From positions 1 through 64,000 of the forward strand of contig NC_018941.1 of the NCBI RefSeq assembly GCF_000304475.1: a stretch of DNA of 64,000 nucleotides, in the 5' to 3' direction. The notes below the pieces were generated by a model. The model saw nothing but the letters and a program-made list of their open reading frames with translations. It searched no databases and was not told the DNA's origin. Below, one piece after another: positions 16,615 to 36,760 of this stretch. A program made the position numbers and the translations under genes. How positions within the stretch are numbered: position 1 is the first letter of the stretch; each line of letters starts with the position of its first letter. The stretch comes from Kazachstania africana CBS 2517 (lineage: Eukaryota; Ascomycota; Saccharomycetes; Saccharomycetales; Saccharomycetaceae).

Positions 16615-17427
16615 TTACAAGCCGTCACATTCGCTGTCTATGCCTCCGTAAGCTTGAACATATCCTTCTCCGACAATTATTGAATTATCCCCAGCTGTAG
16701 AACTAGCTCCCATTGCGAGACAAAACTTACTTTCAACTGCATAGCATTCTGGACTGTTCGTACATGATTGAACTTGCGAGGTTATCCAACCACCAAGAAT
16801 TGGCCCAAATTCATCCACCTGTTCTCTTTCATCAAGCATCCATAAATTCGAAGCGACAACATTGAATCCGTAAGTATTAAACGAGACCCATTCTCCATTA
16901 TCTCTCTTATTGAACGTGGTAGCATTGGATATGTGGTCTGATAAAGCTGCTGCTGCGGATGCCACACTATCGGGACGAGCATATACAGTGGTATTGAAAT
17001 CGCCTCTATCAAATGTCCATGTAACGAAGTAATCACCTTCCTCGCGCTTTGAGATTTGATTTCCAGAACCAGTTTGTGCTTGTGCCAGAAAAGTGACATT
17101 AGCGGTGTGTTCCCCGAGATATTTAGAGATTATGTCGTAGTAGTCAGAAGTAACAAGCTGGCCACCAAAAAAGGTCATGTTGAGTTTAGGAATATCAAAA
17201 CTAACAATGTCATTTCTTTTTCCCACTTCGGCTGAACCTTTGTACCACTCCCATTCATTGTTTTCAGCATATAATTGAAGACCAGCAGCTAGAGCAGATG
17301 CCATAGCACCTACCGCTATAATCCCGACGCATGCCTCAAAAGCAGTAACCACAAAACCTGTAACAGCTACAATAGCACTAGTTGTACAAATTTTGCCTTC
17401 TAAATTTTCTGCGCTGTTTATTGCCGG
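16615..17427 (-). pseudogene. K1-type killer-toxin-like precursor, copy 1, 5' end missing
   Basis: An open minus-strand frame of about 270 codons (17427 to 16615) with no ATG at a sensible start. The 245-codon part from 17352 begins at GTG. It shows two hydrophobic stretches near its start, three Lys-Arg sites of Kex2 type (residues 45-46, 102-103 and 149-150 from the GTG codon) and several Asn glycosylation sequons. The Cys-rich C-terminal part has VQSCTNS and ends YGGIDSECDGL. The layout of hydrophobic pair, dibasic sites and Cys-bearing C-terminal chain is that of K1-type killer preprotoxins. Two related copies lie at 26833 and 34354. The secretory signal is missing, so I call it 5'-broken. 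An intron supplying an upstream exon was considered, but no GTATGT donor was found. Confidence 0.55.
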
Positions 17428-17699
17428 TTACCTTGCTTTATTTAGTAATAGTTAATAATCGAGATACGCTAATAGCGTACTATAAGAATTCAACAATATT
17501 AGAAAAAAAACTTCTTATGAGGAATCGAGATAACAGATCTGATCGAAGCTCCTGTACAATCACTGGTACTGGCAAACATTTTCAGCAGGGAATTATCTGT
17601 CACTGGAGAAGACGCGACAAACTTTTGTCCTCAATATTCATTCACATAAGGGAATTGAAAAGAACAATATATCACTTCATGAGACCCTCACCTCTCTTG

Positions 17700-19717
17700 T
17701 TCCCGAGATAATTTCAGGAATTTCTTACATTGAATCCATTTCTCCTTCAAATACCCAACTCTCCTGCTTACGATTATTAACATTTATGTCAACCGGAAAT
17801 GAAATTTTGACTACTTCTCTCTCCGTTTTAAGAAATATTAATCAATTAATCAATAGATATTCCACAAATGATGGATATAACGAATTTTTTCAGTTACTAT
17901 TACTATTACCACTACTCTTCATCTTTAGATACTCACCTTTTTCGAACCTCCTAAACACCCACATTGTAGCTCAATCTATATAAATCACTCACGCAAATAA
18001 CAAAATATCCATTCACATTTCAATACCCTCAATATTCATATAGAGACCGTCATTTCTTCTACCTTCACTTTGAAACCTCGCACAATCGTTTCCGTGGTAA
18101 CTCCCCAGACAAATTCGCTTCCGGATAGGGGAAATCACATCTTCCTTCTACGCGATAGAGAAAAATGGTTTATATTTGATCTTTTCTTCCGAAAAACAGC
18201 GCTCACCGAAACTAATAAAGATATCTTCTAACCTTTATATATAGCTAAGATACATGTATTCATCCAAACTCTACTCACCTTTCTTAGACCATCTCCACGC
18301 ATCATCTTCACAATAACGGTTACTTAGACATCTCACAGGTGCCTTCTGTATCCTTTTCTTCGTCTCTCTCCTATTGACTATTCATCCGCGCAAACTTATT
18401 TTTAGAAATCTCCGCGCGATCTTGACAAATCAAAGCTCAAATTTCATCTGCTCTGTGAGATTGTGCTTGTCAGCGCTTCCCTGGGTTACCTTCTTACACA
18501 AGGAGACGAAAAAAGATCATGTTGAAATAACATCTCTCCCAGGTACAACTAAAGTCAAAGACTATAACTACACCTATCATATTTCATCTCATTGAATATA
18601 TCCACAATCCACTAAGATATGACATCCTTCCATTCATCATCTATTTCACTTTCTCATTTCCCACACACCTCTCGAGTGGTCATATCATCTATCTACCTAT
18701 TTAATCTCTCTACTTGTCATTTTGTTTACAGACATAGCCTCTATACTCACACATACCACATCTCTATGAACTTTCTTAACTATTCAAATCAATCAACTAC
18801 GCCTATCATAAACCGAGACGATATGAACTTTACTTAATTTACAAATTCAATACTCTGATGAACTCAAATATCATTCCTAACTGCCTCTGACACTTCCGCA
18901 ACTAACTATTCCATAAGCGACATCGTCAACCATGTAAATTCACTAATCATTATTCATACTTCCTACTCTCACCAAGGTCTCCCTACCAAATGATCAATAA
19001 CCAAAAGATCGACAACACAGCTTCACAACATGCTCCATTCATTTGGGAACCTTGAGTTCAATTTAATGAGAATGATAAAGAGAGTCATTTACCAAATATC
19101 AGTCTATAACATCGTTTATGAAACACTTCATTGACCTATTTTCTTGTCATCTTTCATCTTTCTGGAATCTCTCAACTAATTTTTCTTATCAACTATGACA
19201 TCCCTGTTTAAATTTCTGCACCAATTTTACCCATCTTTAGATTGATTTAATATTTGTGACACAACTTTGAACGGACCAGCCATGAACTCAGATCATTGTA
19301 ACTATAATACAATAAATGTTCCAGAACCTCACGCTGCCATTCCTTAATCACCTGTTAAGTAACTCAGGTTAATTCAACTGGATATAATAAGAGATCAATA
19401 CCATACATAACACAAGGAGACATCTTTTAATGTATTCATTTTATTCAACTAAAAGAACAATAGATTAACCCTATTCACAGCCAACATTTCTATTCTATTT
19501 ACTTTCTTTCCATCACAGAATCGCTTCCAATGTCAATATAATGCTTCAACATATCATTTTCTGACACAACACTAGGATCATTCCAAATGAATCTGCGGCT
19601 TTATCCCATTGACAGCAATGAATTGAATACACCATCTCATTTCATATTCATTGTAATCCATTAATTCACCATTTACTTGGAATTACTTATCCTAATCCTT
19701 AATTACCATGAAACATA
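17700..19717. repeat. G-poor, strand-asymmetric repeat, unit 1
   Basis: The plus strand is extremely poor in G (2 G against 19 C in 18601-18660) and remains so for about 2 kb. Landmarks recur about 2.7-2.9 kb downstream: ATTAACATTTATG at 17778 and ATTAACATTTACG near 20489, CCTCGCACAATCG at 18078 and again near 20845, and CGCGCAAAC near 18388 and 21261. The part from about 18920 to 19620 is also related to 35900-36700. Stops close every frame. Short minus-strand stretches look like decayed protein (for example NDPSVVSENDML), so a former coding or retroelement origin is possible. Nothing intact. Confidence 0.6.
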
Positions 19718-20153
19718 NNNNNNNNNNNNNNNNNNNNNNNNNNNNNNNNNNNNNNNNNNNNNNNNNNNNNNNNNNNNNNNNNNNNNNNNNNNNNNNNNNN
19801 NNNNNNNNNNNNNNNNNNNNNNNNNNNNNNNNNNNNNNNNNNNNNNNNNNNNNNNNNNNNNNNNNNNNNNNNNNNNNNNNNNNNNNNNNNNNNNNNNNNN
19901 NNNNNNNNNNNNNNNNNNNNNNNNNNNNNNNNNNNNNNNNNNNNNNNNNNNNNNNNNNNNNNNNNNNNNNNNNNNNNNNNNNNNNNNNNNNNNNNNNNNN
20001 NNNNNNNNNNNNNNNNNNNNNNNNNNNNNNNNNNNNNNNNNNNNNNNNNNNNNNNNNNNNNNNNNNNNNNNNNNNNNNNNNNNNNNNNNNNNNNNNNNNN
20101 NNNNNNNNNNNNNNNNNNNNNNNNNNNNNNNNNNNNNNNNNNNNNNNNNNNNN
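19718..20153. other. Assembly gap (436 N)
   Basis: Run of unknown bases inside the G-poor repeat. Open frames crossing it are artefacts of translating N. Confidence 0.99.
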
Positions 20154-21321
20154 CCCTCTCCTTCTTGAAATAATATCTCAAATTTCCTACTATTTCTAGG
20201 CGAGATATCTCACTCGAAATACAGCGTCAGAGACATGATCCTGTCGTATAATGGATCTAATCACTGTCTCATAACATTATCTCATAGCAAATATAATTGA
20301 CTGCTCACTCCCTCTTGCCTACTCTCATTCTTCGCTGATTGATTTCCATATATTGTCCTCATCTTCACATACTTCCCTACTTTACATACTATTTTGGAAT
20401 AATATTTTAATATCATCATTGAATACCACTTTTCCACTCTTTCATCACTCTCTGTTCTGTAAACACCTACTTTTTCTCTTTTCCAATATTAACATTTACG
20501 CCAATCCGAAACGATATTTCTTCAACTTTACTTCGTCTTTTCCTGAAATATTAAAATAAAAATCAGGAACCCACTGACTAAACTATTACACACACGATAC
20601 ATCCATATATAAATGACAAACTTGCCCTATTTCCTCTGAACTAATGGGAAAACTATTATTTTACTATCTCTACTATCAATTTATTCTATATTCGAATAAT
20701 CGTCTTTCTCTGGACTGATGATCCTGAATATTACCTACATCATCCACATAAACTGTCCACACTCGACAGATTTCTATACATCTCTTCCCATTTTAATATT
20801 GTCTACACTCAGCTAGATACTGCCTTATATCGTCTCACTCTGACACCTCGCACAATCGCTCTTCTCACAACTTTCGAAAAATCTCGCATTCCGAACTGCG
20901 AAATTCATTTTCTATTCCATCCGCGACGGAGAAAACTGATTCTCATTGAATTATTTTTGTGTAAAACCTACGCTCACAGGATTCTCCTTATTTTCGTCGT
21001 AGCTTTTCTACAGTGAGAGAATACCGTACAGACAACACTTGAAAGATCTCGTGCGACCATTTCTCAGGAAACTTCTTTAATACTAATCTTTCAACCTTCT
21101 CACCTCAATACAATAATCAACACACACACTTTCTATCCAAAATACATTTAATTATTCCTGAACTACTCACCCGCTCCCTTTTCAATATCACTTACCTCTA
21201 CATATTACACTTCCCTCTGCCATTCTTCTCTTCGCCTTTTTCTCTTTCGACTATTTTCTCGCGCAAACAGACCTCTCGAAATCTGCGCTCGATCTCAGAA
21301 GAAAAAAATCTCAAATCTTCC
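20154..21321. repeat. G-poor, strand-asymmetric repeat, unit 2
   Basis: Second, diverged copy of the G-poor sequence. It matches unit 1 in order, with shared words around 20489, 20845 and 21261. On the minus strand the end of this unit reads EIERRFREVCLREKIVERE, and the equivalent place in unit 1 reads a decayed variant with IARRF and IVNRRE, which hints at an ancestral protein. No intact frame. Confidence 0.6.
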
Positions 21322-21540
21322 NNNNNNNNNNNNNNNNNNNNNNNNNNNNNNNNNNNNNNNNNNNNNNNNNNNNNNNNNNNNNNNNNNNNNNNNNNNNNNN
21401 NNNNNNNNNNNNNNNNNNNNNNNNNNNNNNNNNNNNNNNNNNNNNNNNNNNNNNNNNNNNNNNNNNNNNNNNNNNNNNNNNNNNNNNNNNNNNNNNNNNN
21501 NNNNNNNNNNNNNNNNNNNNNNNNNNNNNNNNNNNNNNNN
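21322..21540. other. Assembly gap (219 N)
   Basis: Run of unknown bases at the end of repeat unit 2. The frame 21198-21626 on the minus strand exists only because N codons do not stop it. Confidence 0.99.
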
Positions 21541-23152
21541 CTAGTGGCCCTTCCGTAACACATATTCAATATATGTTTACAATCGTGCGAAAGCCAACAT
21601 ATATAAGGCCTTATATCTTCTATCATTTTTTATCTATTAGACTTTCTTTCTCCCATGTATATTCTATACCATAGAAGATTGTATTATATAATAACTACTT
21701 TACTGTCCAGTGTTTGCTACTGTAATTATGACTCAAATAAACAATAGTCCTACTATGACTACAAAAGGTCCCCGCCCGGTATCTAACATACGCCAACAAA
21801 AAGTAGTCGCAGAAATCTATTTTCAAGTTCAGGTTTTTCAGCTCGAGTTAGGATTTCAATCCATATACTGACATATGAAGTTTACAGTGCGAATTGGCTT
21901 GATTTTGATTCAATATTATTTTGAAATTGTAGCTGTTCTTGTGACTGCAACGGAAGAGAAACAATTTTACCTTGCGGTCTAAAAAGCAATATATGCATTG
22001 AGCGCATCCTGCAGGGGCATTCTTCAACCAAAATACACTAAATTCCAGTGTTAGGTAATATTTTCAAGTAGCTTGCTTCTTTCAGGCAGTTTACATTTTC
22101 AGCATATTAGATAAGCAAGTATCTTGAAGTAAGTATAAAATTTCAAGATATATCATATCGGTGCATAATGTGTTATGTGCCCTTAACAACTGGATATAGA
22201 CCAAGACAGCGGGAATAAAACTACGTATTAATGTATCAGTCGCTAACGTGCTAGATTAAGACCCTTAGAAACTAAAACCGAATATTTATTAATAATAAAA
22301 AACATATTAATAAGAATTTGAACTGTCTGCTCTTTGGTGCCATTACTCAACTGGATTCAGAGGAAGTGAGGTAGTTATGTGCATTGTCCTGAGGGTATTA
22401 CCATCCGAACGGTCAAGATTCAACTGCTTTGAGGTTTCGCTTCTCAATTTCTTCGCAATTTTGTATATTTTGATTAGCAAAATAGGAAGTAAGTCGATGT
22501 TCTTTTGCCCATCTTAGGTTGTCTTTTTCACATAAATGGCTGCTTAGCGGGATGTGAGCAACTATAAACGAAGTGCTTTTTATAGTATCAAGTTTTTTTT
22601 CTCTGCGGATTATAATGCTTTTGCTTAGGGTTCCCATCTCTAAAACTTCGGTTTTTGCACAAAGAAAGAAAACATTTTGCAGCCAAAGATTATTGGCCTT
22701 TAGAAGACGATGTTGTCAGACAGTTGCTTCTGAGATTATAGGTAGCATTGAAAATTTTGTCCAGGAAACCACAAGATTTTGCTCTTAATTAGTCGAAGCA
22801 TGAACCAGATGCATATTAGAAAAGGACTTTTGGATTGCGCTACCACTGCCGGCTACATATGCAGCCATTTATTCTGAAGTATAAACCATTTTATAGTTGA
22901 TCTTGGACCGGCAGTTTCTTATGATTAGTGCTAGATACCGAGACACATGCATGGTATGTTACTTGCAGCTTCTGAAGTTGTGCGATTCCATACAATTTGA
23001 TCTCTGCTTTATTGATTGTGATTTTTATCCATGCTCGAAGCAGACTTTCTACTACCGGCAAAAATTGTATTCAAGACACCTTCTTTGGCGTGTTTCAGGT
23101 TTCATTTTCCCTAGCTTCTTTCTTTATATTTAATAAAAGGATTAGTCGATAG
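21541..23152. other. Intergenic stretch
   Basis: Base composition returns to normal after about 21700. No gene seen. Short frames at 22413-22788 and 22897-23133 have no family features. The right end is the promoter region of the secreted-protein gene. Confidence 0.35.
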
Positions 23153-23221
23153 CTATATGAGGTTAGAGGCTACTCGAATGAGTTTTTTCAATATCAATCT
23201 TTTTCAGCCCTGATCGCTTCA

Positions 23222-24127
23222 ATGTGCCTTCTAACCTATGCCGCAGTATCTACTGAAAACAATAGCACAACGCTATTATCAAACAATACTGACGAGGTAA
23301 CGGCAAAATACTTCTCACCAGCTCGTGGAAATCCTTACCTCCCAACTGACGACTTATACAGGCCCTACATCACTTTTCAGTTATTGAGTCAATTATATAA
23401 CAATCATCCTACCAAAGACATATCTTTGATAACTCAAAACAATGAAACAGGTATTGTAGCTATTCGTACCATTGACATAATAAATTATTCCGAATTATAT
23501 GAAGAAGAGTCCAATGAGCTGTACAGTTACATTGATATGAAACTTTTTAGTCAATTGAATGCTCTGTTCACAGGCACAAACGTTTCTAATAAGACTTTCG
23601 AAAATTTTGAGAAAGGATATTACAGAGAAATAATTGTTGATTCTTATAAGAATGCTACGTCCCATATTGCTAGCACCGCTTACAAAGGAAGTAATCCTAG
23701 TTTTTTGATGTCTTTCATTTCCTTAGTTGATACTCTTTCGACCATTGTAAGTAACATTTACGGCCTTGTAACCGATGGTTCATCCAATAAAAAGCACTCT
23801 TCAACTCAAATATGTGGCTCCTATTCGAACACTGTTAAAGTTGATGGTAAAGAATTCGGATATATAATTTACAAGTATTCGAAAAATGGTCATGGTTGTA
23901 ACTTTGCAAAAGGTAGTGACTTGGAAGTGGTCTTGATCGAAGCTATTGATACCAAATTTCCAAGAGGTATAACAGGGGTATGTGTCACTTTATTCCATGA
24001 TGAATCTAGAGTTGCTTATGCTAAATTCATTATGGCTGATAGTAAGATGAATTTTAGTGACGTTGCTTGTGAAGCGGTTTCCGGTTGGGATGCACCAGGG
24101 TCTGTGGCTGGTACAGTATCTGCTTAA
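23222..24127 (+). CDS. Putative small secreted protein, CSS2/CSS3-like C-terminal domain
   Basis: A 301-residue frame from the ATG at 23222. It has several Asn sequons, a central region with DDLYRPYITFQLLSQL, and a C-terminal domain of about 100 residues with paired cysteines (ICGSY, GHGC, TGVC, VACEAV). The cysteine spacing recalls the C-terminal domain of small yeast secreted proteins such as CSS2/CSS3; this resemblance is weak and from recall. The first residues are only half of a signal peptide. The same frame is open upstream to 23153 and supplies more hydrophobic residues but no ATG. A separate frame with an ATG at 23178 runs into the same place, with a T run at 23200-23204 between them. 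A one-base indel or assembly error is therefore likely. A damaged paralogue follows at 24320. Function unknown; a toxin-like role cannot be excluded. Confidence 0.6.
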   Translation: MCLLTYAAVSTENNSTTLLSNNTDEVTAKYFSPARGNPYLPTDDLYRPYITFQLLSQLYNNHPTKDISLITQNNETGIVAIRTIDIINYSELYEEESNELYSYIDMKLFSQLNALFTGTNVSNKTFENFEKGYYREIIVDSYKNATSHIASTAYKGSNPSFLMSFISLVDTLSTIVSNIYGLVTDGSSNKKHSSTQICGSYSNTVKVDGKEFGYIIYKYSKNGHGCNFAKGSDLEVVLIEAIDTKFPRGITGVCVTLFHDESRVAYAKFIMADSKMNFSDVACEAVSGWDAPGSVAGTVSA

Positions 24128-24319
24128 TTTGTTTCATTCTATCGTACAAAATTTTAAAAAGAAATTTCTTTACTATGGTAGCTTATTTTAAGATTTATGA
24201 TCTGTGATATATCGTTATAGTATATGCCTCAATTCTTTGCCTTTCGAAATTTATTTGTAACTGAGTTTCTTTCGTACTGAATAAATGCCAGCGCCTCTAC
24301 TGCATATAGGCCCAGATGT

Positions 24320-25172
24320 TTGTTCCATGGCCCCAAGGAAGCCTCCATCAATTACTTTTTCTTAGCCTCTGATAACCCCTTTGGCCCTTCGAATGAACTT
24401 TATAGACTTTACATTACCTATATTGTGATGAATAATTTATGTGCAGATTATCGAATCGCAGCCCCTTCTATCGCCGATCAAGACAAAAATACAAATATTA
24501 TGGGAATATGTATTATCACTAAAAATAGATTTCGCCTTTTTGGTTTTGATGCTGATGTTAAAGGGCCACATGTTCATCTTGATAGTGATCTTTTTGTTCA
24601 TTTAGGTACGATGTTCGGTGGATCAGTGGTTATTAATGGTACCCTTCCGCCAATCAATGAGTATGAAGTCTCAAGTTTATATGACTGGTTCATGGAGCAA
24701 AGGGTGTTCATAATGCATGTTGCTGACAATGACAAACAACCGCTCTGCGTTATCCAAAATATCAACGACTGACATGATATCTTCTATTGCTATGTCTATC
24801 AGTAATATTTGGTCTAGTGACTATGAGTCGCTATCTGCTGCAGATGGTAGTTTTGGAGGTTACCTAATGGTGGAGGAAGAGAGAATCAATTATGTAATTT
24901 ATAGGTATTCGAAGAATAAAAGAGAATCGAGTTCCTTTTCCGCTTTCAATGCCGAGGCTACTGAATTAAACAGACTTCTTATCGAAGCTCTCCATACAGA
25001 AATCCCAAACAATACAATAGGGTCATGTCTTTCATTCTTTCATAACGGGCCTTCAGCTGTTTATATTAAATTCCTCGAGGCTGAAAGCGAGCTGACTTTC
25101 GATGATATACGTTGTGAAGGTATGATGAGATGGGGTGTCTTGGGCATTATTTGCTATATCTTCATTACATAA
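24320..25172 (+). pseudogene. Damaged tandem copy of the secreted-protein gene
   Basis: Two overlapping frames (24320-24772 and 24717-25172) together align with the gene at 23222. NELYRLYITY matches DDLYRPYITF, INYVIYRYSKN matches FGYIIYKYSKN, and the LLIEAL and C...FFH landmarks also correspond. The frames are shifted relative to each other, with the break somewhere in 24717-24772. No signal peptide is seen upstream of 24320. Two of the conserved cysteines of the first copy are missing in the GHGC region. This is best read as a decayed tandem duplicate, with protein-level divergence large enough for an old duplication. Confidence 0.65.
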
Positions 25173-26742
25173 AGCACATACAAAGAAATATAATTAAAGG
25201 GTACCTTTTCAGTAATTCGTCCCCTAATGAAACTTGGGTGTATTTCTTAAAGAGATTCCTTTCATAGCTCGTTGAATTTTGTTATGGGTTTGGTGTCTAC
25301 GCCATGTGAAACTTCTTGCTCAAACCTAATTTCTTTTGAATTCACTGATTAGCAACAACTAAAATTAAGAAGCTCCTATAACAGAAACTCGAAAAGTCCT
25401 TGCATGAACTAGATCTACCGGAACTGAGATATACCATTGTATCTAAAATACTACATTGGAACCTTCAATTTTCAACCATCGATGATGCAAACTACTGCAT
25501 TGGCTGTCGGACCAACCCTGAGACGCTAAATAGTTCCACAACAATATAGTTGCTAATAGGTGAAGTGTTATTAGAGGCGGACAAAAGGTAACAATAGGAT
25601 GCAAATATGAATCAATAGGATGATTTTCCTTAATTATCTTATACAGAGAAAAATATAATCAAATATAGTTTCTAGTAATATTTGATGTGAATTTATATAG
25701 TTTATTGTATTAAAAGGAATTGACTCCCTTTGCATATTGAGTGACTCTTAACAGTAGAAGTTAGCCTAGCCTTTGTTCTTTGCTTTTAATATACATTAAG
25801 CATTGGACGCCTTTTAACAAATTCAACAACTCACGACTTCATAGGCTGACAGTACTACGATTATACATCTAAAATAGCGAATATTTCAGAGTATTCTACT
25901 TGCGCAGATTGCCATCGAGCACGCGCCAAGCGTTACTTCGATTGCACCGTCCCCCATTCGCGTCAATTTCCCTGTTGCTCTGCGTCTTTCACCCCCCCCC
26001 ACCAAATTCCCGTTTACAGAATCGCAAAAGTGAAAAACTTTTGGCCCTGAAAAAAGGCAGGTTTCCAAAAATAGAAAAGAAATCTAAGCTTCTCAGGTAT
26101 CTATACAATATTTTTTATTCTTGATAATAAATACGTCATACTGTTGGTCGTCTTTAGATCGAAAAGTCGATGTGGAAAAGATAGATAACTTTGTACAACT
26201 ATTAAACGATTATTATCTGCACAGGAGAAGGTAAAAGAGCTATATGCTCAAGATGAAACACTAATGAAGAAACAAAACGAACATAGACTTCCACGCTTAC
26301 CATTGAAACTTGGCGGTAAAAGTGCAATTCGCTTAGCCAATTAAGGTTCCTAGTCCAAAGTTGCCTTAGCGTAAACTTTTATAAATTCTGAAAATCAAGC
26401 GTGAAAAGCATTTGCAATAGCGGGTAAAAAAGTTTCTACATTAGGCTCTGTGTACTTAAGTCTTCTGCTCATAGTTTGTTTTAATTCACTTTGTACTTCC
26501 CTAAGAATATGCCTAATGGCGAAGAATATAATAAATACACTTCTTGCAGCTATAAGGTTCCTTTTCAAATCTATCTTTCTTTCCAACAAAATACTACAGC
26601 ACCTACTAAAGTTCAGTAATTTTGTTCTGGCTTATACTACCGGCAACACTTTAACCCATTAGAAGATGGCCACGCATACTGGAACAACTTTATTTAATGC
26701 AGCAGTGAATAAAAATTTTCCAAATGCGAAGCAATTTATTGA
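25173..26742. other. Intergenic stretch with local GC-rich patch
   Basis: No gene seen. Bases about 25900-26030 are unusually GC-rich for the window and include a run of ten C at 25991-26000. Open frames here (25886-26124) are low-complexity and opposite one another. TATA-like GTATAAAAGG at 26751-26760 marks the promoter of the next relic. Confidence 0.4.
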
Positions 26743-26832
26743 ATTGAAAAGTATAAAAGGTGGCTAAAACTGGGTGTTTCTAAAATAATATATTATCCAT
26801 TAAGGTATAATCAGATCACTGGTAATAGATTA

Positions 26833-27725
26833 TTGCAGTTCTCAAATTGCTTTAAGAATGTCGTTCTGGCGGTATTTATACTCGCAAGCTCTGTTGCAGC
26901 CTTAAGGTATAATAAAAGGGGTCACTATAGCTTTCGCGGCGGCAAAGTTGTTATTGACATTGGATGGGACACCGTTGCTGGATGGACTGGTATGGTTGCT
27001 GCTATTTGCAAAAAGTGTGCCGCGAGTAACCTTTGCTGCCTCGGCGGTGCTATTTTGACGACTATAGTTGCTGCGGCAGTCGCCATAAGTTTCGACAGTT
27101 CAGCGGGAGGATCAACTGATTATTACACTAAAAGAGGTCTTAGTGATATGGTAAACGTTACTTATGAAATGAGAAACTGGACGGAATCCTTTACTGCATC
27201 AGGTCTTCAATTAATTTCTGCCTTTAATCTCACTGATACATATGAAAAGAGAGATGATAATGTTTTGCCTCTGCAGCCATATATTCATTTCAGCAGTGAA
27301 TACGGTAATCATGTGGCAGTGAATTTCGGTGATGGGACTTTAAATCATTGGCAGAAGCCATCCTGAATTCAGAACCAAATTCGCCATACATTTCGCAAAA
27401 TATAACCAAACGAAGCGAAATGCCAGGTGACGATGGTTTTCAAGTGACATATGTTACGTACAATTACGATAATGTGAACAAAGATGTTTCTAACAGCTTT
27501 ATTGAAAATTACAGTGCTGAATATAAAGATGACATCACAGCAAATATAGATGATGCTATGGTTAATCACAGAGGTTGGAAGTATTGCGCAATGTTTGGTG
27601 AAGGAGGTTCAGGAAGTGATACAGATCTAGAAAGTGGAGCTACAGCCATAGCTGCACACGGTGAAATTTATTTTAACACATATGGAGGTATTGACAATGA
27701 ATGTAACAATGTTTTAGGCTCTTGA
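26833..27725 (+). pseudogene. K1-type killer-toxin-like precursor, copy 2, start lost and frameshifted
   Basis: Plus-strand relic in two frames (26833-27366 and 27348-27725). The first frame begins with a clear secretory signal core (VVLAVFILASSVAA), but the codon where a start is expected is TTG (26833), and no in-frame ATG lies between the upstream stop at 26740 and the signal. Dibasic Lys-Arg sites follow at residues 28-29, 100-101 and 139-140. Between the first two are two hydrophobic segments separated by a Cys cluster (CKKCAASNLCC), the layout of the K1 alpha region. The shift to the second frame falls in 27331-27363. The C-terminal part has a further Lys-Arg, a cysteine, and ends with NTYGGIDNEC as in the other copies. 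Two independent lesions make it a pseudogene. Confidence 0.6.
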
Positions 27726-28108
27726 CCAGTCTGAAATTTCGTTATCTAGGCATATTAGCTGCAAAATCATGGCCCTCGAAGTTCATATTTTACATTGTCT
27801 AAATTTTTATATTTTTATCTAATAAAACTATTATTATTTTTCCAAAAATTGGCGTGTTTAATAGAGCGGACGGAATCTATAGGTAAAGAAGGATAAGGCA
27901 GGAAAAAGGGAACAAGCTGTCAGAAAGATAAGTTTCTTTACCCGAAAAATCTCATGAAAAAAAAGTCTGGACGAAAACTTGAATAAACCCTACTAATTTA
28001 AAGGTATGCCTCGAGTAAACTTAGTTGTTGACATATATTTTTAAAAAAACTGAGTAAAGAAAATCTCTTTATACTTCGTTGATTAGATTTATATTCTCTA
28101 AAGCCAAA

Positions 28109-29870
28109 ATGGCAATTTTCAAAAATGTTGTGGGCTCATGCTTATCTGAACTAAGCCAACTAAATATAAAAAGAAATCTACAGGATCCCTTGATTCCGCA
28201 GTTGAGAGTCAACTAATTGGCTCCATACCATGCAATTCGTTCAGTAGTATACCCTATAGTAGTTTAGATACAAACATATCGACTCCAACGTCTGAGAAGC
28301 AGAAAGTTGATTATGAGCTCAAAGAGCTGAATGTTGAGGGTCAATTAGCTCTAAGAATCATATCCAGTCACATTTTAAGATTTCTGTCATTCAAAAAACT
28401 AGGTTTCGCAGTCGACACTGTAAAAGAGATTTATTCATATGAGGCAGCAGTAGCACTTCATAAACCACACTACAAACATATATTTTCTCGAAGAATGCTC
28501 GTCCCCTCCGGGTTATATTCATGGATATTTGAGTAACAAAACGCTCGTAGGGAAGACATGTCAAAAAAAGCAATTTTATTTGTATATGCACTTATTTGAA
28601 GCCAACAGACAAATTCGATTTCGCGATGTAGCAAACCTTGCAACGACATGACGTTCTAATTTTGGGTAAATGCCCATAAGAGAAGAGCTCTTCATTCAGT
28701 GGTGGAAAGGCGAAAAATGTGCAGCTTAGCTGAAGACGAAAAGGACAGTATAATCCTGAATGCTTCTAATCCCAAAATCCGAATTAAATCTAAAGTGGAT
28801 GAGCTTGGCTATTTTTTGGATAAACGCAATAGCCTCATCTGTATTCGTGATGAAAGGACATACAATCACTACTGAAAGAGACCTAAAAGCCCGTATCACA
28901 GGAACACTTCAATGTTTAAAACAGCTACATCGTATACCCAGGTCTTTTATCATTTACCGAATACCAAATGGATAACTTTATGGGCATGATATTAACGATG
29001 TACAATCCAGAAGAGAATAAACTCATGTTGGCATACTCTCCTTTGTGTCCTTTCATAAGCTGAATGCCTCAGCACTGCAACTCTCGCTGAGGAACTCGAA
29101 GATCTCTTCGACTTTTATCCTAGTTTGCATGGAAGAACTTAGCACGTCAACGAATAATGGAGCAACTATACTGAAGCACCTAATAGATCTGGAAAAATTA
29201 AATATTCTTGGTTCACAATTTTTGGGGCATGTCCCATGTTTGTTCTACAGTATGAATTTAACTAATGGCTGCCCTTTTCTAAGAGTTGAAGATGTAGAAG
29301 CAGATGGGATAGATGACTACTCTGAAATCAAATAACTGGAGTTGGCAACAGTAAAATTTCAATTAACAGAGGGAATTAAAACTGGTGTAATAAAAGAGGA
29401 TCAGTTGCTCTGTATTTTGCCTGTATATCCCGTAAGGATGCCGATTTTGATGTCATAGGTGGTGAGCAAATCACAGACTATGTCAATGAATATGTTAATC
29501 TGAAATCAATGATCAACTGGCACAATATAAGCTGAAAACGAGTATAAAAAAGCGTTATGTAGGGAATCTTGTGAAAGGCCGGCAAATTTCATTTGAACAA
29601 AGCCTGGAAATCGAAATCAACTTCTACAACAAGATGGGTATCAGCTTTGGATCCTTTTTAAGGTTGGGGAGCTGAGGTCCGTATTGTATGAAATTAATTG
29701 TAACAAAGACCATGAACTTAAATTTGAAACAGAAAAAAATATGATGGTTTGTGGCCTGTTGCTGCGAGTTATATCATTCGGGCAGCTATTCAAAACTCTT
29801 TTTAATGATTCATGTACAGTAAAATGCCCAGTTCATTGCCTCCTTTCCTATAATATAAAAGACTAATGGA
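28109..29870 (+). pseudogene. Unidentified, multiply frameshifted gene
   Basis: A series of short plus-strand frames in different phases look like one decayed protein. The first begins at an ATG at 28109 (MAIFKNVVGSCLSEL) and stops near 28216. The next, open without ATG from about 28151 to 28534, includes NVEGQLALRIISSHI. Further pieces are at 28718-28876 (from an ATG, with VDELGYFLDKRNSLICIRDE), 29045-29335 and 29684-29866. I do not recognise the family. No transmembrane or signal segment stands out. It may be a gene of the subtelomeric repertoire or part of a mobile element. The assignment to a single former gene is inferred from strand, order and spacing. Confidence 0.4.
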
Positions 29871-30384
29871 GAAAAAAAAATGGTTTATTCAACAGAAGGT
29901 AACAACCGCTTTAGGCGCGCGAATGATTTGGATGAGCTTCTTTTAAGTAATGCCAGGATTTCTATGAAAAGATCAAAAGATGCAGAAGACATGTATTCTT
30001 TTTAGCAATATCCAAGAGATGCTGTTTAGCGGCCAAATTGGACGAATTATAATACTTTCCAGAAAATAAACATTTCCTTTTTACAGCTGGTAGTAAAATT
30101 ACTCGTCTCGAAATATGATATATCCAAAAGGCATACTCATTTACTTTGGAAAGCTAATTTTCATGGAAAGTATCTGTCTCTTACTTCAGAAGTGTTCTCG
30201 TTCAGGCGTCATGAAATGTAGCTACTTTTTATTAGTATGACCGTAGAAATGGCATAATAACATTGACTAAAAGATCACGGCGAGTTTTAGGATGGTCTGC
30301 ATAAAAGACTTGTATTTTTGAATTTACATGTAGAATTAAATAGTAGAGCAGCTTTCAAAAGCTAGATGTTTTGAATAGCATTGT
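29871..30384. other. Intergenic stretch
   Basis: No gene seen; 3' flank of the Bxi1-like gene on the minus strand and the tail of the preceding relic. Confidence 0.35.
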
Positions 30385-31170
30385 TCATTTGATCCATTTT
30401 AGAAACTGTGGAAATATCGTAATAATACATATAAAAAGAAAAAGTGCATCTGGGCAACCCTTGATTGGACCAAAGTTCCGCAACATAGAAGCAAATACGA
30501 AAATTGGGTACATTCCTAAGAACAGTGCTGACCATATATTATATGCTAAAGAACAACTAATTCCTTGATCGATTAAAATAACAAAGAAGACAGTACCGAG
30601 CAAGACGCTAGTTATCCATAGCACCAGAATTTCCTTTGAAATAATAAACCCCATTTTCCCTCCAACTCTTGTATCACAAACGATTCCTGCAATAAGGAAC
30701 ACAATTATTGAAGAGGTTATCAAAGATTTGAACCGAGCATCGAAGTCTTCATTTAGCAAAGATAATCGAGTGAATTGATAAGAATAAGCTAAAGTATAGA
30801 TGAAATAGAGTACTCGTTGCTTGATGGTTAATTCGTAGAATCTCACAGAGGCATTCTTTTTCAGCAGTGACTCTTCATCTAGGATTTGTTTTTCAGAAGT
30901 GGCATTCCAAGGTGAGTATATAAGAAATAGTATTGATGCTGTTCCAATTACACCACTCAAAGGAGACAACCAGTTGTTTTTACTAATAAATATTGATACT
31001 GCTTTCCAGTGGAAGATACACTCTGCGAAAACAAGTACGAATATGACCTGAGCTGCTAAGATAGCGTAGACCTTACGACGAAAAATTCTCATCACAGCAA
31101 AATTATATGGATGTTCCCCTTCTTCTCCAGGAATATTATATTTCGGATATGTTTGTAGTGTGTCCGCCAT
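30385..31170 (-). CDS. Divergent Bxi1-like (TMBIM/BAX-inhibitor) membrane protein, copy 2
   Basis: A 261-residue membrane protein starting at an ATG, paralogous to the gene at 14549-15373. Both share the entry motif RRKVYAILAAQVIFV / HLRVYSLLSAQVLFI, a later IKQRVLYFIYTLAYSYQF / GQQVIFFISTLAHCYRF helix, the VCDTRVGGKM / VCDTKFGDKM loop and the same order of about seven hydrophobic segments. The C-terminus ends in a hydrophobic segment plus Lys. It is intact although nearly everything around it is decayed, which argues for selection or recent duplication. It lies between killer-toxin-like copies 2 and 3. The Bxi1/TMBIM assignment rests on the first-helix motif, helix count and length; subcellular site and function are unknown. 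Confidence 0.68.
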   Translation of the reverse strand: MADTLQTYPKYNIPGEEGEHPYNFAVMRIFRRKVYAILAAQVIFVLVFAECIFHWKAVSIFISKNNWLSPLSGVIGTASILFLIYSPWNATSEKQILDEESLLKKNASVRFYELTIKQRVLYFIYTLAYSYQFTRLSLLNEDFDARFKSLITSSIIVFLIAGIVCDTRVGGKMGFIISKEILVLWITSVLLGTVFFVILIDQGISCSLAYNIWSALFLGMYPIFVFASMLRNFGPIKGCPDALFLFICIITIFPQFLKWIK

Positions 31171-31643
31171 AACGAATTATACAACCTATAGTAATATGAT
31201 TCTACCTTCCTGGGATGATTAAAAGAAGATCGAGAAATTTTTTCTTTTAAAATGGTTTTTCGAGATATCTAGATTAAAAAAGGGGCTGTTCAAGTGAAAA
31301 AGCCTTTTGTCATATACAAGAGCTTTTTAGCAACTAGAAAAATACAAGCGGTGCCAAATTCGATGATATTGAGAACGGATCTGGAAAGAGAGCAATTTAC
31401 GATGCACAAGCCATTTAGAGGAAATGTTTACCTCTCCCTCTCGAGAAGGAAACTGACTCCAGTAGAAAGTCGGACGGCAATTAAAATAGATTTGCCCGCA
31501 TATACTTTAAGTCATATATTCGAATGCTTGGTATATTATCTATAATATATTAAGCTTTTTTCAAGGGCGTACTAAGCTATGCCTTAAATAGAAAATGAAT
31601 GTTTCTTCGGTTTCCGGATCAATGTGCAATAGGCCTTTTGCAA
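31171..31643. other. Intergenic stretch, promoter side of Bxi1-like copy 2
   Basis: No gene seen. A plus-strand 83-codon frame (31294-31545) has no family features. Confidence 0.3.
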
Positions 31644-32430
31644 CTATTGCTTCCTTAGGGCATTTCCTGTTATATTGATGAAACAGAAACTTAGAATTAA
31701 TATTTGGAGCAAATATACTGCTAGAAGAAGCCGTTGAGAAGTTATGATCTGATTACAGAATGGAGAAGTCCTCTGAGAAGTTATTCTTTTGAGCTCGAAA
31801 CGTACACATACCAGCAAAAGGATATTTTGTATCTCTAAAGGATCATATGCGGTATTAGTGCAACAATTACTATAGCTGGAAAAAGTACTATAATATTCAA
31901 AGAAGGAATAATATACAAAAGAACTAATGAAGCCAAGGGAGCGCTTCGGAAAGATTATGCTGTATCTAGGTAATTTCCTATTTATTGCGTCAATTTGATA
32001 ATGCCATTCTTCGTTTTCATCCTTTCCATTCATGCCCTTTTCTATAATAAAAACTCCATTAAAAGCATCTGCAATTTGTTGGTCTAAAACTTGGGATCTG
32101 TGGTTAGACAACGTGTCAGTGCGAAATAACCCAATGTCACACTTTCTGTTTTTATTGTAAGTAGACTGGATAAAGAACAACTTTGATACTGGATCAACAA
32201 AGACATTTCTAGACTTACCAGCGAAGTCGAGAAGACTCAATTCAGTGAATGAAAGAGAAAGCAGGAGCTATCCAAATAATTGTGATCAACAGCTTTGTAA
32301 GGCGGTTGATGACCTTCTCGATGGAGCAAGTAGTTTCAGAATTTTCACTTTCTGATGATATTCCCCATCTAACTCTGGGGCTTGAGATAGACGTAGCAGG
32401 AATAACCTCAAAAATGCTCAACAAAGTACT
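31644..32430 (-). pseudogene. Subtelomeric helicase element, N-terminal relic (copy C)
   Basis: Minus-strand relic whose DNA from about 31985 to 32240 aligns closely with 12795-13115 of the longest helicase relic. Both encode SKLFFIQSTYN, then IGLFR.D.LS..RSQVL, then FNVVFIIE / FNGVFIIE, then an EW.YQI.AI.R.L motif. Upstream (32242-32424) the frame matches the preceding part of copy B less clearly. After INRKLPRYSIIFP the sequence leaves the helicase alignment and continues in a different, partly hydrophobic frame to 31644. No DEAH box or second motor domain is present. This copy lacks an insertion of about 90 bases that copy B carries. Confidence 0.55.
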
Positions 32431-33358
32431 GGCAGTATGATCCTAGGTATTTTAATATGAATTACCAAGCGTGGAGTTTGAATGGTTGAGTGACAACAGT
32501 AAAAGTATCTGTTTTCTCGAATATCCGATGCTCGAGAAAAAGAGATTTGATAGAATTCATTCAAAGAAATGAACAGGTCAACTAAGATATGTAACTTACA
32601 TTAACAATGAACCTCAAAGCTGACAGAATTGAATATGCTGATTTCATAGAACGAAAGGAAAAAAATGCTAAAAAAGGTGAGTACCGTATTACTGACCAGC
32701 GCTCCTTCCATCAGACTACTGTTATTCCCTTCTGGTTTACCAAAGACCTATAGATTAGATTGTGCTAACACCAATTACTCTTGAGCAGCTTTCTTGAGCT
32801 GAATCTTCCTTCAAAATGGAATATCTTTCAAAGGCTCAGAATTGCCTTCTTTCCATGCATGAAACAACACTATACGCCTACTATCAATGGTATATTATGT
32901 TAAGAATAATACGGAATATTATCTCCAACTTTTACGAGGTATTGAAAACATTCGTAACTATGAACTTGTTTCCATTTATGTCAACTATTTTTCCATTCAA
33001 ACTATGTAAAATAGACTCATCCAACCAGTCAAGTATCTCTGATGGTATGCAATACTCAAGGTGTCTGATTTTTCATTAAAATCATTAGAATTTGTTTTCA
33101 CTCCAACATCCTACATTGTCTGCCTTTTGAATCCCTCCGACCATTCATAGAAGCTCGCTCTATAATGCAACGAATAAGAGGATACAAGTGTATAAAGCAC
33201 TCCATTTCTATGGTACTGAAATGAAGTTAACACACCTAACTTTTTCTATTCCGGAGAAAAGTTTGAACTATGAGACATCCCATCAGACCGGGATGATACA
33301 ACCACACAAATGCATTCAGAAAACAGTTCCACGATTTCTTTCATCAATACTACACCAT
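32431..33358. other. Gene-free stretch
   Basis: Short frames only (32816-33079, 33188-33403), none with recognisable features. Confidence 0.3.
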
Positions 33359-34025
33359 TCAACCAAGGAAAAACGTTTGTTGATAGTAACTTCTATTGAT
33401 TGACTCTAATATTTTAGCTATGTGTTGATTGTTTACTTTTCTTGATGCCGTTGAAGAATAGGACAAGTTCGTCAAGATCTTAATTTCGCTTTTATCTAAT
33501 TCGGGCAAAAAAAACAAAATTTTGTAGCGAGATGTATCAGTAAGTGTAGGTACATGATATGAAGAGGATAAAATCCTGATCTCTGCTCCATTGATAGGTG
33601 TAATGTGTGTTAGCAACAGTAGAAGACGATGAACATGGTTAGTGAGCTCGCAGGAGAACAGAACTCATGGCCAATTACTCTCAATCAGAAGGATAGAACG
33701 CTAGAGTCCGGTATAGTTCCATCTATTGAGGACAATATTATGAGTTACATCGGGACAAGTTATACTAGTTGTTCGAATACAAATGGTGACTACTTGTATT
33801 TTCAAACAGAATGATGGCTCTTCTATAAAGACAATGATGTTGAAACCGGCAGTGAAAGGGCGCGTATAATACCATACTACGAGGTACCCTTATATAAGAA
33901 TCTAAAACCGTACTACTTAAATTTGTATATGATTCATAAACGTTTATAAAACCGCCAATATCTCGCAACTTCTGACATTGAGATGTCAAATCCACGTCTT
34001 TCAGGCCCAGACGACCAACGAACAC
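33359..34025 (-). pseudogene. Unidentified coding relic
   Basis: Two minus-strand frames, 33765-34025 (GRLGLKDVDLTSQCQKLRDI) and 33359-33616 (HVPTLTDTSRYKILFFLPEL), have protein-like composition and follow each other in order, with closed frames between them. I do not recognise the family. They lie upstream of helicase copy C on the same strand and could be its far N-terminal part or a separate gene. Confidence 0.3.
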
Positions 34026-34140
34026 GCAGTTTAGTCAATTCTAACCTCTACTCTGGAGAAGAATAAGAGAAGTTAAAACTTTTGCTACTGTTAAAACATA
34101 TCAATGCTGGAAATGCGGCTTTGAGAAACTATTTTGTTTA

Positions 34141-34172
34141 GGTATATATATAAATATATATATATATATTCT
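34141..34172. repeat. TA microsatellite
   Basis: Alternating TA tract of about 30 bases. It sits roughly 180 bases beyond the 3' end of the minus-strand toxin-like relic. Confidence 0.8.
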
Positions 34173-34353
34173 CACTTCCAGAGATGAGTAACTTACTTGG
34201 TGTACGTAAGATCGGAACATTCAGGCCTCTAGGAAAAAAGCATTCCTCTTTTTTTCTTAGCCCCTTTTCTCGGTTCTGATTCTTCTTATTTTTTCTCTTT
34301 TATAAATGTATGTGGGCGGACAATGCACTACTGCTTATGATAAGGTAACAGGA

Positions 34354-35463
34354 CTAGCCATCTTCGCACACTGTATCGAGCCCACCATATTGGTTGTAGT
34401 AAACCTCTCCTACCATGGCTGACTCAACTGTACGTTGTGAACTGAAGCCCCAAGACAGGCAGAGTTTCTCATAATAGGCATAGCAGCTGTAACTATTAGT
34501 GCACGACTGCACGCTAACAACCTGGCTAAATACGTCGCTGGTAGCCCATTCTTTGCCAGCGGTAGTGAACTCGCCCCAGTCCCTCAGGTCCTGTATATAT
34601 CCGCTGTTACCTCCCCACGCAGTGTAAGACACCTATATTGAGCCAGTATCTCTCATTGTGAAAGTACTGTTGGAGTTCGCAGCGTTGCCTAGCATGTGAG
34701 ATGCACCTGCTTCCAGCACTGCCGTCACATCTCCCACGTCATATAGGGCCGTGTAGTGAAATTGTGGGCCTTGAGTATGTATATAATAACCGAGTGCTGC
34801 CTCTCCTATGTCGGTTGAATTATAGAGAGCTCTTACTGTCACATTGTGATGAGGGTCTAGATCATACGCAATCACAGCATCCACATCCTCATAGTTGCCA
34901 GTCAGGTTATGGCCGAGCCCTACTCCAAGCTCGTGTATTGCCCAGTAAGTCCCGATCTGGTCTCTTTTGACTAGTCCTGCAGGCAGAACTGCATTCTCGT
35001 TAGTATAGAACCATCCTGCGTCTTTTCCGTACGAACTGATGGCTACCGATGCGAATAGTCCTGTAACAGTTATTGCCCCCAAAGTAACACAGAGCTTGGT
35101 CTCCGATTTATAATCCGACACCGACTCAACGCCGAAAAGCGCTAGCCACCAGTCCGAACATTTCGAACCGGAGAGATATCCTGTTCCTGCTGGTATTAGT
35201 CCAAAGATTGTTATAGCTCCTTTAACAACTGCCGATTGCCATTTATTCAAAGTTCTTGCTGCAAATCTAAACCTGCTACAGCGACAGGATAAGCGTACTG
35301 CCATAGGAAATAAACCTATTACATCTCTAACGAACCACCAGCTAAGCATCATTATATGAAGTGAAAATACCATAACCGCCGAATCATACAAAAATCTACG
35401 TATAGTGAAATCCCTTATTTGTGGTACTTCGCGTACACGTTGCTGCGGAGGTGTATTACCCAT
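34354..35463 (-). pseudogene. K1-type killer-toxin-like precursor, copy 3, single in-frame TAG
   Basis: A minus-strand gene with an ATG at 35463 and one continuous phase to 34354, interrupted only by a TAG at 34633-34635. It encodes 276 codons before the stop and 92 after it. Features in order: a hydrophobic N-terminal segment (residues about 28-56), two further hydrophobic segments (about 78-98 and 124-143) bracketing a Cys-bearing loop (KCSDWW to TKLC), a Kex2-type Lys-Arg at 166-167, and Asn sequons. At 270-271 there is Met-Arg where copy 1 has Lys-Arg. The part after the TAG carries VQSCTNS and ends YGGLDTVCEDG, matching copies 1 and 2. The TAG makes it a probable pseudogene; its context is not that of known readthrough sites. 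Killer-toxin-like assignment is by layout. Confidence 0.6.
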
Positions 35464-35899
35464 TTCAGTAGTATCTGGAGGGTTTTACTGTTCATTAGAA
35501 GACATTATCACATTTTGCAGTTTCGTTCGTTTCAATACACAATTCTATAGGCCTTTTATATTGTTGTATTTTACATTTCGAGATGAAAATTTTTCACGTT
35601 TATGAGGAGCGCGTTGCAGATTTTAATTGTCACCACGGTTCCCATCAGGATTGGTTGCATTGTGCTGCAAACATATCCCATATGTTGTTATCTATACGGC
35701 CAACTTAATGATTAGAAACGTTCCACCATCCTAATCGGGATAAAACACAGTGTTTTCATCTACGTGCGCGAAAAATATAATAACTTTCAAAGCTTGCTAC
35801 TCTGGTACCTAATCCACGGTTCCAAAGTGCTTGTAATTTTAACTTGTCGCACCTCTCGTTTATGCTGTCAAACCCTAATGTCTGGAAATACAACAAATG
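35464..35899. other. Promoter side of toxin-like copy 3
   Basis: No gene seen between the ATG at 35463 and the start of the G-poor repeat. Confidence 0.3.
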
Positions 35900-36760
35900 A
35901 AAGAAACACTTACTAGTCATGACTTACATTTCCTACTCTCACTAAACGTCTCTCTACCAAACATGGACGTCAATAACTGAAAGACCGACAACACAGTTCC
36001 AGAATCTATTTTTCTGAACTTGAAAACATTGATTTCAATTGAAGGAGAAAAAGAAAGAGAACAATTTGCCAAATAATTCTATCTAAAATATCATTCTGTC
36101 AAGACACTTCACTGACTCAGTTCTTTATCATATTCTATCTAATATATCCATTATAATATTCAATTCACAAATCTCTCGAACGTCGATTCTTATTAACTGT
36201 AATACTATCCGTTAAATTATCATTAACTGGTTCTTATCTTTCTTGAATTTTTAAAGCATCTACTCAATGTGTAGCCTTATTCTAATAAACTCGTCACCCT
36301 TCTCACTCTATAACTAAAGAAACATCGTTCAGTTCGGCTTAAGAGAATTATTTGTAGAGGTGGATCATCTTGCTAATATATTCTTTCCAATCTTTTAATT
36401 CTTCTCAATCATATCAACAGGTAACATCCTAAGACATTCTGTTTGATTACTTTCACTAGCGATCTTAATCTCTTGACATATTTCAATAGCAGGACCGGCC
36501 ATAACTTTGACAGAATACTTGAACACATCATATTTTAGCACAACACCTTATACCATTTCAAATGAATATGCGACATTAACAAATTTGAGATCGACATTAA
36601 CAAATTTGGCATCGACATCGACATTAACAGTGCATATACCGTCTCATTCGACATTGGTTGTATTTCGCTAATTAACCATCTACTTGGAAAGATGTCTTAA
36701 ACGTTCCACTTTATCTTCAATTTCATTAATAAAACTAGCATCCTGAAATTTTATTTTATA
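35900..36760. repeat. G-poor repeat, partial third copy
   Basis: Shares ordered words with 18920-19620: TTTCCTACTCTCAC, then CTCTACCAAA, then GACCGACAACACAG, then GGACCGGCCAT and, further on, CAACACC...ATTTCAAATGAAT. On the minus strand it reads KVMAGPAIEICQEIKIAS, where unit 1 has a decayed FMAGPFKVVSQ. All frames are interrupted. Only the second part of the unit is present here. Confidence 0.5.
36571..36630. repeat. 21-base minisatellite
   Basis: CGACATTAACAAATTTG followed by a short variable tail occurs twice with a 21-base period, then a truncated third copy CGACATTAAC. It lies within the G-poor repeat. Confidence 0.75.

What the first reader, a model, noticed from the sequence alone, without database searches (positions are those of the whole stretch)
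16615..35463. Three related killer-toxin-like precursors in one subtelomere
Relics at 16615-17427, 26833-27725 and 34354-35463 share paired hydrophobic segments, Kex2-type Lys-Arg sites, glycosylation sequons, a Cys-bearing C-terminal chain and the ending YGG(I/L)D..C. That order is the K1 killer preprotoxin layout. Chromosomal K1-like genes derived from dsRNA satellites are known in some yeasts. These copies differ enough to be an old, diversified family rather than recent duplicates.
Basis: partly seen in the sequence, partly recalled or inferred. Interest (0 to 1): 0.75.

Follow-up and report, generated by a model that had tools for sequence, protein, structure and literature searches.

The report
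Broken K2-family killer toxin genes
This stretch near a yeast chromosome end holds three broken copies of a known kind of gene, the K2/KHS family of secreted yeast-killing toxins, so it is a graveyard of a known toxin family rather than a new system.

Summary
The three relics are real and related. They belong to the K2/K21(K66)/KHS killer-toxin family (Pfam DUF5341); K1 membership could not be tested. Exact matches to KAFR_ proteins identify the genome as Kazachstania africana CBS 2517. The scans found 12 members there, a lower bound. 11 of 12 lie within about 35 kb of a contig end; 3 look intact and 9 are broken or lack a proper start. Copy 1 is a 5'-truncated paralogue (75% identity) of KAFR_0E04500, already published as a K2 homologue (PMC5618225, passages). 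Copy 2 is a frame-broken KHS-like copy. Copy 3 carries an in-frame TAG at the start of its beta chain, shared with a contig-6 copy. The shared ending matches residues conserved in over 90% of K2-like beta chains (PMC13404059, passages). No complete toxin can be made from the frames as read. One loose end remains: the TAG-bearing pair keeps an open prepro-alpha-gamma frame. Immunity or read-through is possible but unproven; gene conversion explains it as well. Structure prediction failed.

The parts
16615..17427 (-). Copy 1: 270-codon open frame, 5'-truncated K2-like precursor (part of alpha, gamma, beta)
   Evidence: 75% identity to KAFR_0E04500, from its residue 108 on; DUF5341 20.5 bits, below the 25-bit cut-off
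16627..16728 (-). Beta signature of copy 1
26743..27366 (+). Copy 2, first frame (207 codons): signal-like, alpha and part of gamma, KHS-like
   Evidence: profile match E 4e-8 to the KHS-like alignment A6; tblastn
27333..27725 (+). Copy 2, second frame (130 codons): rest of gamma and beta
   Evidence: DUF5341 82.9 bits, E 3.8e-23
27579..27704 (+). Beta signature of copy 2
34633..35484 (-). Copy 3, piece before the TAG (first ATG of this frame at 35463): prepro, alpha, gamma; ends with the TAG at 34633-34635
   Evidence: 91% identity to the contig-6 copy; no Pfam match
34354..34632 (-). Copy 3, piece after the TAG (92 codons): beta chain
   Evidence: DUF5341 25.9 bits; 45% identity over 64 residues to KAFR_0E00110
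34366..34467 (-). Beta signature of copy 3
32681..36140 (.). Segment duplicated at C6:25494-28957 that carries copy 3
   Evidence: 87-88% DNA identity; divergence dips inside the gene

Best explanation
The three relics are decayed, subtelomerically duplicated members of the chromosomal K2/KHS killer-preprotoxin family (DUF5341) of K. africana: copies 1 and 3 of a K2-like clade, copy 2 of a KHS-like clade. An intact member would be secreted as a preprotoxin and cut by Kex2 at Lys-Arg sites into a hydrophobic alpha chain and a cysteine-bearing beta chain, with the glycosylated gamma part removed. Alpha would permeabilise the target yeast membrane and beta would bind the wall or receptor. That mechanism is inferred from K1/K2 literature, not shown here. 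What is shown is the sequence membership, the shared beta signature, the breaks and the duplications. None of the three as read can give a complete toxin. That they arose by subtelomeric duplication and ectopic exchange and then decayed is inference from the duplicated segments and the divergence pattern.
For: DUF5341 matches: copy 2 E 3.8e-23, copy 3 beta piece 25.9 bits, copy 1 20.5 bits. 12 places genome-wide, 7 of 12 over the cut-off, 0 of 14 control genomes. Copy 1 is 75% identical to KAFR_0E04500, reported at 32% identity to K2. The two clades are homologous by profile, E 1.9e-8. The signature matches K2 residues K326, C328, E346, Y348, G353, G354, D356, C359, with the same 34-residue span in copies 1 and 3; it is 42 residues in copy 2. 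Tree of 19 rows: K2-like clade 98/98, KHS-like clade 81/89. Copy 1 versus KAFR_0E04500: dS 0.90, dN/dS 0.18 (bootstrap 0.11-0.26). Duplicated segment of copy 3.
Against: Copy 1 scores below the DUF5341 cut-off on its own, and so do copy 3, KAFR_0E04500, and two more (5 of 12). The piece of copy 3 before the TAG has no Pfam match and only a weak profile match, E 0.035. No named K1, K2 or K21 reference came back to align to. In the tree only 4 of 16 inner branches pass the program's mark, the KHS-like fork is drawn open, and three rows are long. A solved-structure search by sequence found nothing relevant. Both models failed (pLDDT 39.4 and 40.8), and the viral structure search with the first gave 0 matches at E 0.001. 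No toxin activity is shown for any DUF5341 member of this species in what I saw.
Confidence: 0.9

Rival explanations
1. The relics belong to the K1/K1L/KKT family, whose genes K. africana carries in its subtelomeres.
For: Same precursor layout; KKT genes and pseudogenes are multi-copy and mostly subtelomeric, and K. africana is one of the species (PMC7888664). A common fold for K1, K2, K66 and KHS1 has been proposed (PMC13404059).
Against: DUF5341 match and K2-type beta signature. KAFR_0E04500, nearest to copy 1, is the published K2 homologue. The KKT paper speaks of K2-related genes of K. africana separately, and a survey separates the families.
Confidence: 0.05
2. Copy 3 and its contig-6 twin are kept as beta-less precursors that give immunity, the stop falling at the gamma/beta junction.
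For: Shared TAG just after the gamma/beta processing site, Lys-Arg in the contig-6 copy. K1 immunity needs delta, alpha and part of gamma but not beta; for K2 the prepro region suffices (PMC13211469, passages). Truncated KKT genes were proposed as immunity genes (PMC7888664). dN/dS is 0.17 in the prepro/alpha part (7 synonymous, 4 nonsynonymous).
Against: The part after the TAG is no less constrained (dN/dS 0.29) and the gamma part is relaxed (1.26). With a transition bias of 3-4 neither side alone departs from neutrality (P 0.09-0.10), only the two together (P 0.02-0.03). dS of 0.065 lies below the flanks' 0.126-0.159, which points to gene conversion. Copy 3 itself lacks the start used in the contig-6 frame and has two pairs of compensating one-base indels.
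Confidence: 0.1
3. Translation passes through the TAG at some rate, so that copy 3 and its twin still make a full precursor.
For: The same TAG in two copies and lower divergence after the TAG (13/276) than in the 3' flank (69/548), P 0.0003.
Against: Gene conversion explains both. Post-TAG neutrality is not rejected on its own. The codon after the TAG is GTG; efficient read-through contexts known to me have C next (recalled).
Confidence: 0.04
4. Some breaks are sequencing or assembly errors and the genes are more intact than they look.
For: N runs and repeats lie between the copies; several members elsewhere lack an ATG just before a signal-like segment.
Against: The TAG is a substitution found at two places; the frame break of copy 2 does not lie in a long homopolymer; copy 1's homology stops with its 5' part missing.
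Confidence: 0.1

Closest known systems
K2 family of yeast killer toxins (K2, K21/K66, KHS; Pfam PF17276 DUF5341)
   Same: DUF5341 in the beta region, conserved beta signature, prepro-alpha-gamma-beta order, Lys-Arg sites, sequons mostly in gamma, hydrophobic alpha
   Different: Chromosomal, multi-copy and mostly broken here; no complete precursor in the window
KAFR_0E04500 of K. africana, published K2 homologue (PMC5618225, passages)
   Same: 75% identical to copy 1; 374 aa and intact
   Different: Copy 1 lacks the first 107 residues
S. cerevisiae YER187W-like proteins and T. phaffii TPHA_0P01860 (P0002-P0007)
   Same: KHS-like clade with copy 2. YER187W too is subtelomeric and has an in-frame stop in some strains (PMC6213463, passages)
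   Different: P0002-P0005 are single frames of 344-363 aa; copy 2 is in two frames
K1/K1L/KKT family
   Same: Precursor layout, subtelomeric expansion with many pseudogenes, proposed common fold
   Different: Separate sequence family in a published survey; not testable here

Membership tests
K2 family (DUF5341) | DUF5341 profile match | tested here: met
   Copy 2 at 82.9 bits and copy 3 beta piece at 25.9 bits are over the 25-bit cut-off; copy 1 at 20.5 bits is below it. In the whole-genome search copy 3 scored 23.8, below it
K2 family (DUF5341) | Beta residues K.C...E.Y....GG.D..C | tested here: met
   3 of 3 copies, 0 in 100 simulated windows; residue list from PMC13404059 passages
K2 family (DUF5341) | Signal, hydrophobic alpha, Kex2 sites, gamma, beta in this order | tested here: inconclusive
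   Pieces present in order; copy 1 lacks the N-terminus; copy 3 has one hydrophobic segment over the cut-off
K2 family (DUF5341) | Direct alignment to the K2, K21 or KHS reference | not tested
   No K2 or K21 record came back; one hit bears the name YER187Wp-like (P0006). The 32% identity of KAFR_0E04500 to K2 is from PMC5618225
K2 family (DUF5341) | Killing activity | not testable with these tools
   Needs a halo assay
K1/K1L/KKT family | PSI-BLAST-level similarity to K1 or K1L | not testable with these tools
[quoted passage not shown]
   Models of relatives at pLDDT 39.4 and 40.8; no significant structure match

The most novel reading that the evidence does not exclude
K. africana keeps beta-less K2-type precursors (copy 3 and its contig-6 twin) as immunity genes, born by a stop at the gamma/beta junction and kept alike by gene conversion, beside intact K2-like toxin genes elsewhere in the genome.
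Probability: 0.1. Interest if true: 0.55.

Novelty: new member of a known kind. Interest (0 to 1): 0.28.

Why it matters
The region extends a published pattern, subtelomeric expansion and decay of killer-toxin genes (described for K1-like KKT genes of the same species), to the K2/KHS family, with at least 12 members in one genome in two clades. It gives a natural set in which to ask whether precursors that have lost the beta chain still protect their host. It also shows that the K1 layout alone does not separate K1 from K2 relatives.

Tried and rejected
K1 assignment: set aside because the profile and signature are of the K2/KHS type; a direct K1 test could not be run. Structure: A2 (13 rows, KAFR_0E04500 first) and A3 (10 rows, a KHS-like protein first) gave models of pLDDT 39.4 and 40.8. 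Only the first was sent to the viral library; its 305 matches at E up to 10 include none at 0.001. The PDB structure library was not searched. A5 was compared with the second secreted family (A4): no similarity (E 0.34). 5' introns as the reason for missing ATGs: a scan of six upstream regions found 0 strict GTATGT sites, three relaxed 5'-site variants, one branch-point-like site (in copy 2) and no region with both. dsRNA leader motif GAAAAA: 1 of 5 starts. Viral contigs: P0012 no match; P0004 8 pattern matches, none confirmed.

A first dN/dS for copy 3 before the TAG was 0.64 (bootstrap 0.40-1.06) because a misframed stretch was included; without it 0.41. A first neutrality simulation gave P 0.05-0.11 for the post-TAG piece; one search replaced it. 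Whether the open frame of copy 1 proves long constraint: P(no stop) is 0.14-0.18, 0.03-0.04 or 0.002-0.004 for 47, 93 or 186 neutral changes, so it depends on the lineage share.
Full report
What is there. The window is C2:1-64000 of an 11.13-Mb, 12-contig genome. Proteins from other contigs of it are exact matches to KAFR_0C06580, KAFR_0E00110 and KAFR_0E04500 of Kazachstania africana CBS 2517. The three relics are at 16615-17427 (-), 26743-27725 (+, two frames) and 34354-35484 (-, two pieces).

Family. Pfam gives DUF5341 for copy 2 (82.9 bits), the beta piece of copy 3 (25.9 bits, just over the cut-off) and, below the cut-off, copy 1 (20.5 bits). A whole-genome search lists 12 places, 7 over the cut-off. 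The same 12 carry the signature K-x-C...E-x-Y...GG-x-D-x-x-C (3 in the window, 8 in the other 20 fetched subtelomeric stretches, 1 in L010). Passages of PMC13404059 list K326, C328, E346, Y348, G353, G354, D356 and C359 as conserved in over 90% of K2-like sequences. Copies 1 and 3 have the same 34-residue span, copy 2 a 42-residue one. Passages of PMC13211469 and PMC6213463 place DUF5341 in K2, K21/K66 and KHS. PMC5618225 (passages) reported KAFR_0E04500 as 32% identical to the K2 preprotoxin; copy 1 is its 75% paralogue. A full-text search for KAFR_0E04500 found that paper only, and one for DUF5341 found three papers. I saw no description of these three copies, but supplementary tables could not be read.

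Clades. A tree of 19 beta-chain rows puts copies 1 and 3 with the contig-6, contig-7 (19 kb), KAFR_0E04500 and KAFR_0E00110 proteins and two unnamed ones (98/98), and copy 2 with KHS-like proteins of S. cerevisiae and T. phaffii and three other K. africana copies (81/89). Only 4 of 16 inner branches reach the program's mark, and three rows are long. The two groups are homologous by profile comparison (E 1.9e-8).

State of the copies. Copy 1 matches KAFR_0E04500 from residue 108 to the end; DNA similarity stops at 17402. Over the shared part dS is 0.90 and dN/dS 0.18 (0.11-0.26). This ratio pools both lineages, one of which is an intact gene. Copy 2 changes frame between about 27324 and 27348. 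Copy 3 has a TAG at 34633-34635, and its contig-6 twin has the same TAG. Of the 12 members, 3 look intact (KAFR_0E04500, KAFR_0E00110, C7:10.6 kb), while the other 9 are interrupted, truncated or lack an in-frame ATG before the signal-like part.

The TAG pair. Copy 3 lies in a 3.4-kb segment duplicated at C6:25494-28957. Divergence is 25/826 before and 13/276 after the TAG, against 69/548 in the 3' and 100/644 in the 5' flank. dN/dS is 0.41 before (misframed stretch left out), 0.29 after and 0.37 overall; inside the first part it is 0.17 for prepro/alpha and 1.26 for gamma. Fisher tests give P 0.06, 0.03 and 0.006, but simulations with transition bias 3-4 give 0.09-0.10, 0.09-0.10 and 0.02-0.03. 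The flanks show 180 transitions to 92 transversions. Synonymous divergence (0.065) is itself below the flanks, P 0.0005 against 13%. Gene conversion plus earlier constraint is the simplest reading; constraint after the TAG is hinted at, not shown.

Immunity. K1 immunity does not need beta, and for K2 the prepro region suffices (PMC13211469, passages). Truncated KKT genes of K. africana and others were proposed to protect (PMC7888664, passages); that paper adds that K. africana is nonetheless sensitive. YER187W, a K66 homologue, also has an in-frame stop in some S. cerevisiae strains (PMC6213463). I put an immunity role for the TAG pair at 0.1.

Surroundings. The left 41 kb is a patchwork of segments shared with other contig ends. 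Beside copy 2 lies a tandem pair of secreted-looking genes, a second family with copies on C3, C6 (two ends) and C9. It has no Pfam hit for its first member and only weak ones for others, and no similarity to DUF5341 members.

Verdict. Known family, broken copies: a new member of a known kind, of modest interest.

Noticed in passing
window 23153-24127 and 24230-25172 (+): Tandem pair of secreted-looking, glycosylated proteins of a second family; 11 matches in the genome incl. pairs on C3, C6 (both ends) and C9. No convincing Pfam or PDB match. PMC12875307 (section 7, part 1) reports Ksino/Klus-like genes in K. africana; whether these are the same was not tested.
   Followed up: partly
window 18311-21541: Subtelomeric repeat block matching the very ends of C1, C5 and C7, lying inside the contig beside two N runs (19718-20153, 21322-21540): an internal chromosome-end block or a scaffolding join.
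   Followed up: partly
window 10970-11494 (-): Helicase C-terminal fragment below the Pfam cut-off, in a stretch repeated near other contig ends.
   Followed up: no
window 14549-15373 (-) and 30385-31176 (-): Two multi-span membrane-protein-like frames that look like relatives of each other by eye; no Pfam hit.
   Followed up: no
L008 (C1:7 kb), L009 (C3:1.328 Mb), L006 (C7:19 kb), copy 2: Four DUF5341 frames start with a signal-like segment but have no in-frame ATG before it; KAFR_0C06580 as deposited (P0001) starts inside the toxin.
   Followed up: partly
P0010 and P0011: Unnamed K2-like proteins from environmental assemblies; P0011 sits on a contig of at most 2017 bases, about the size of a killer satellite RNA (size range recalled).
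   Followed up: no
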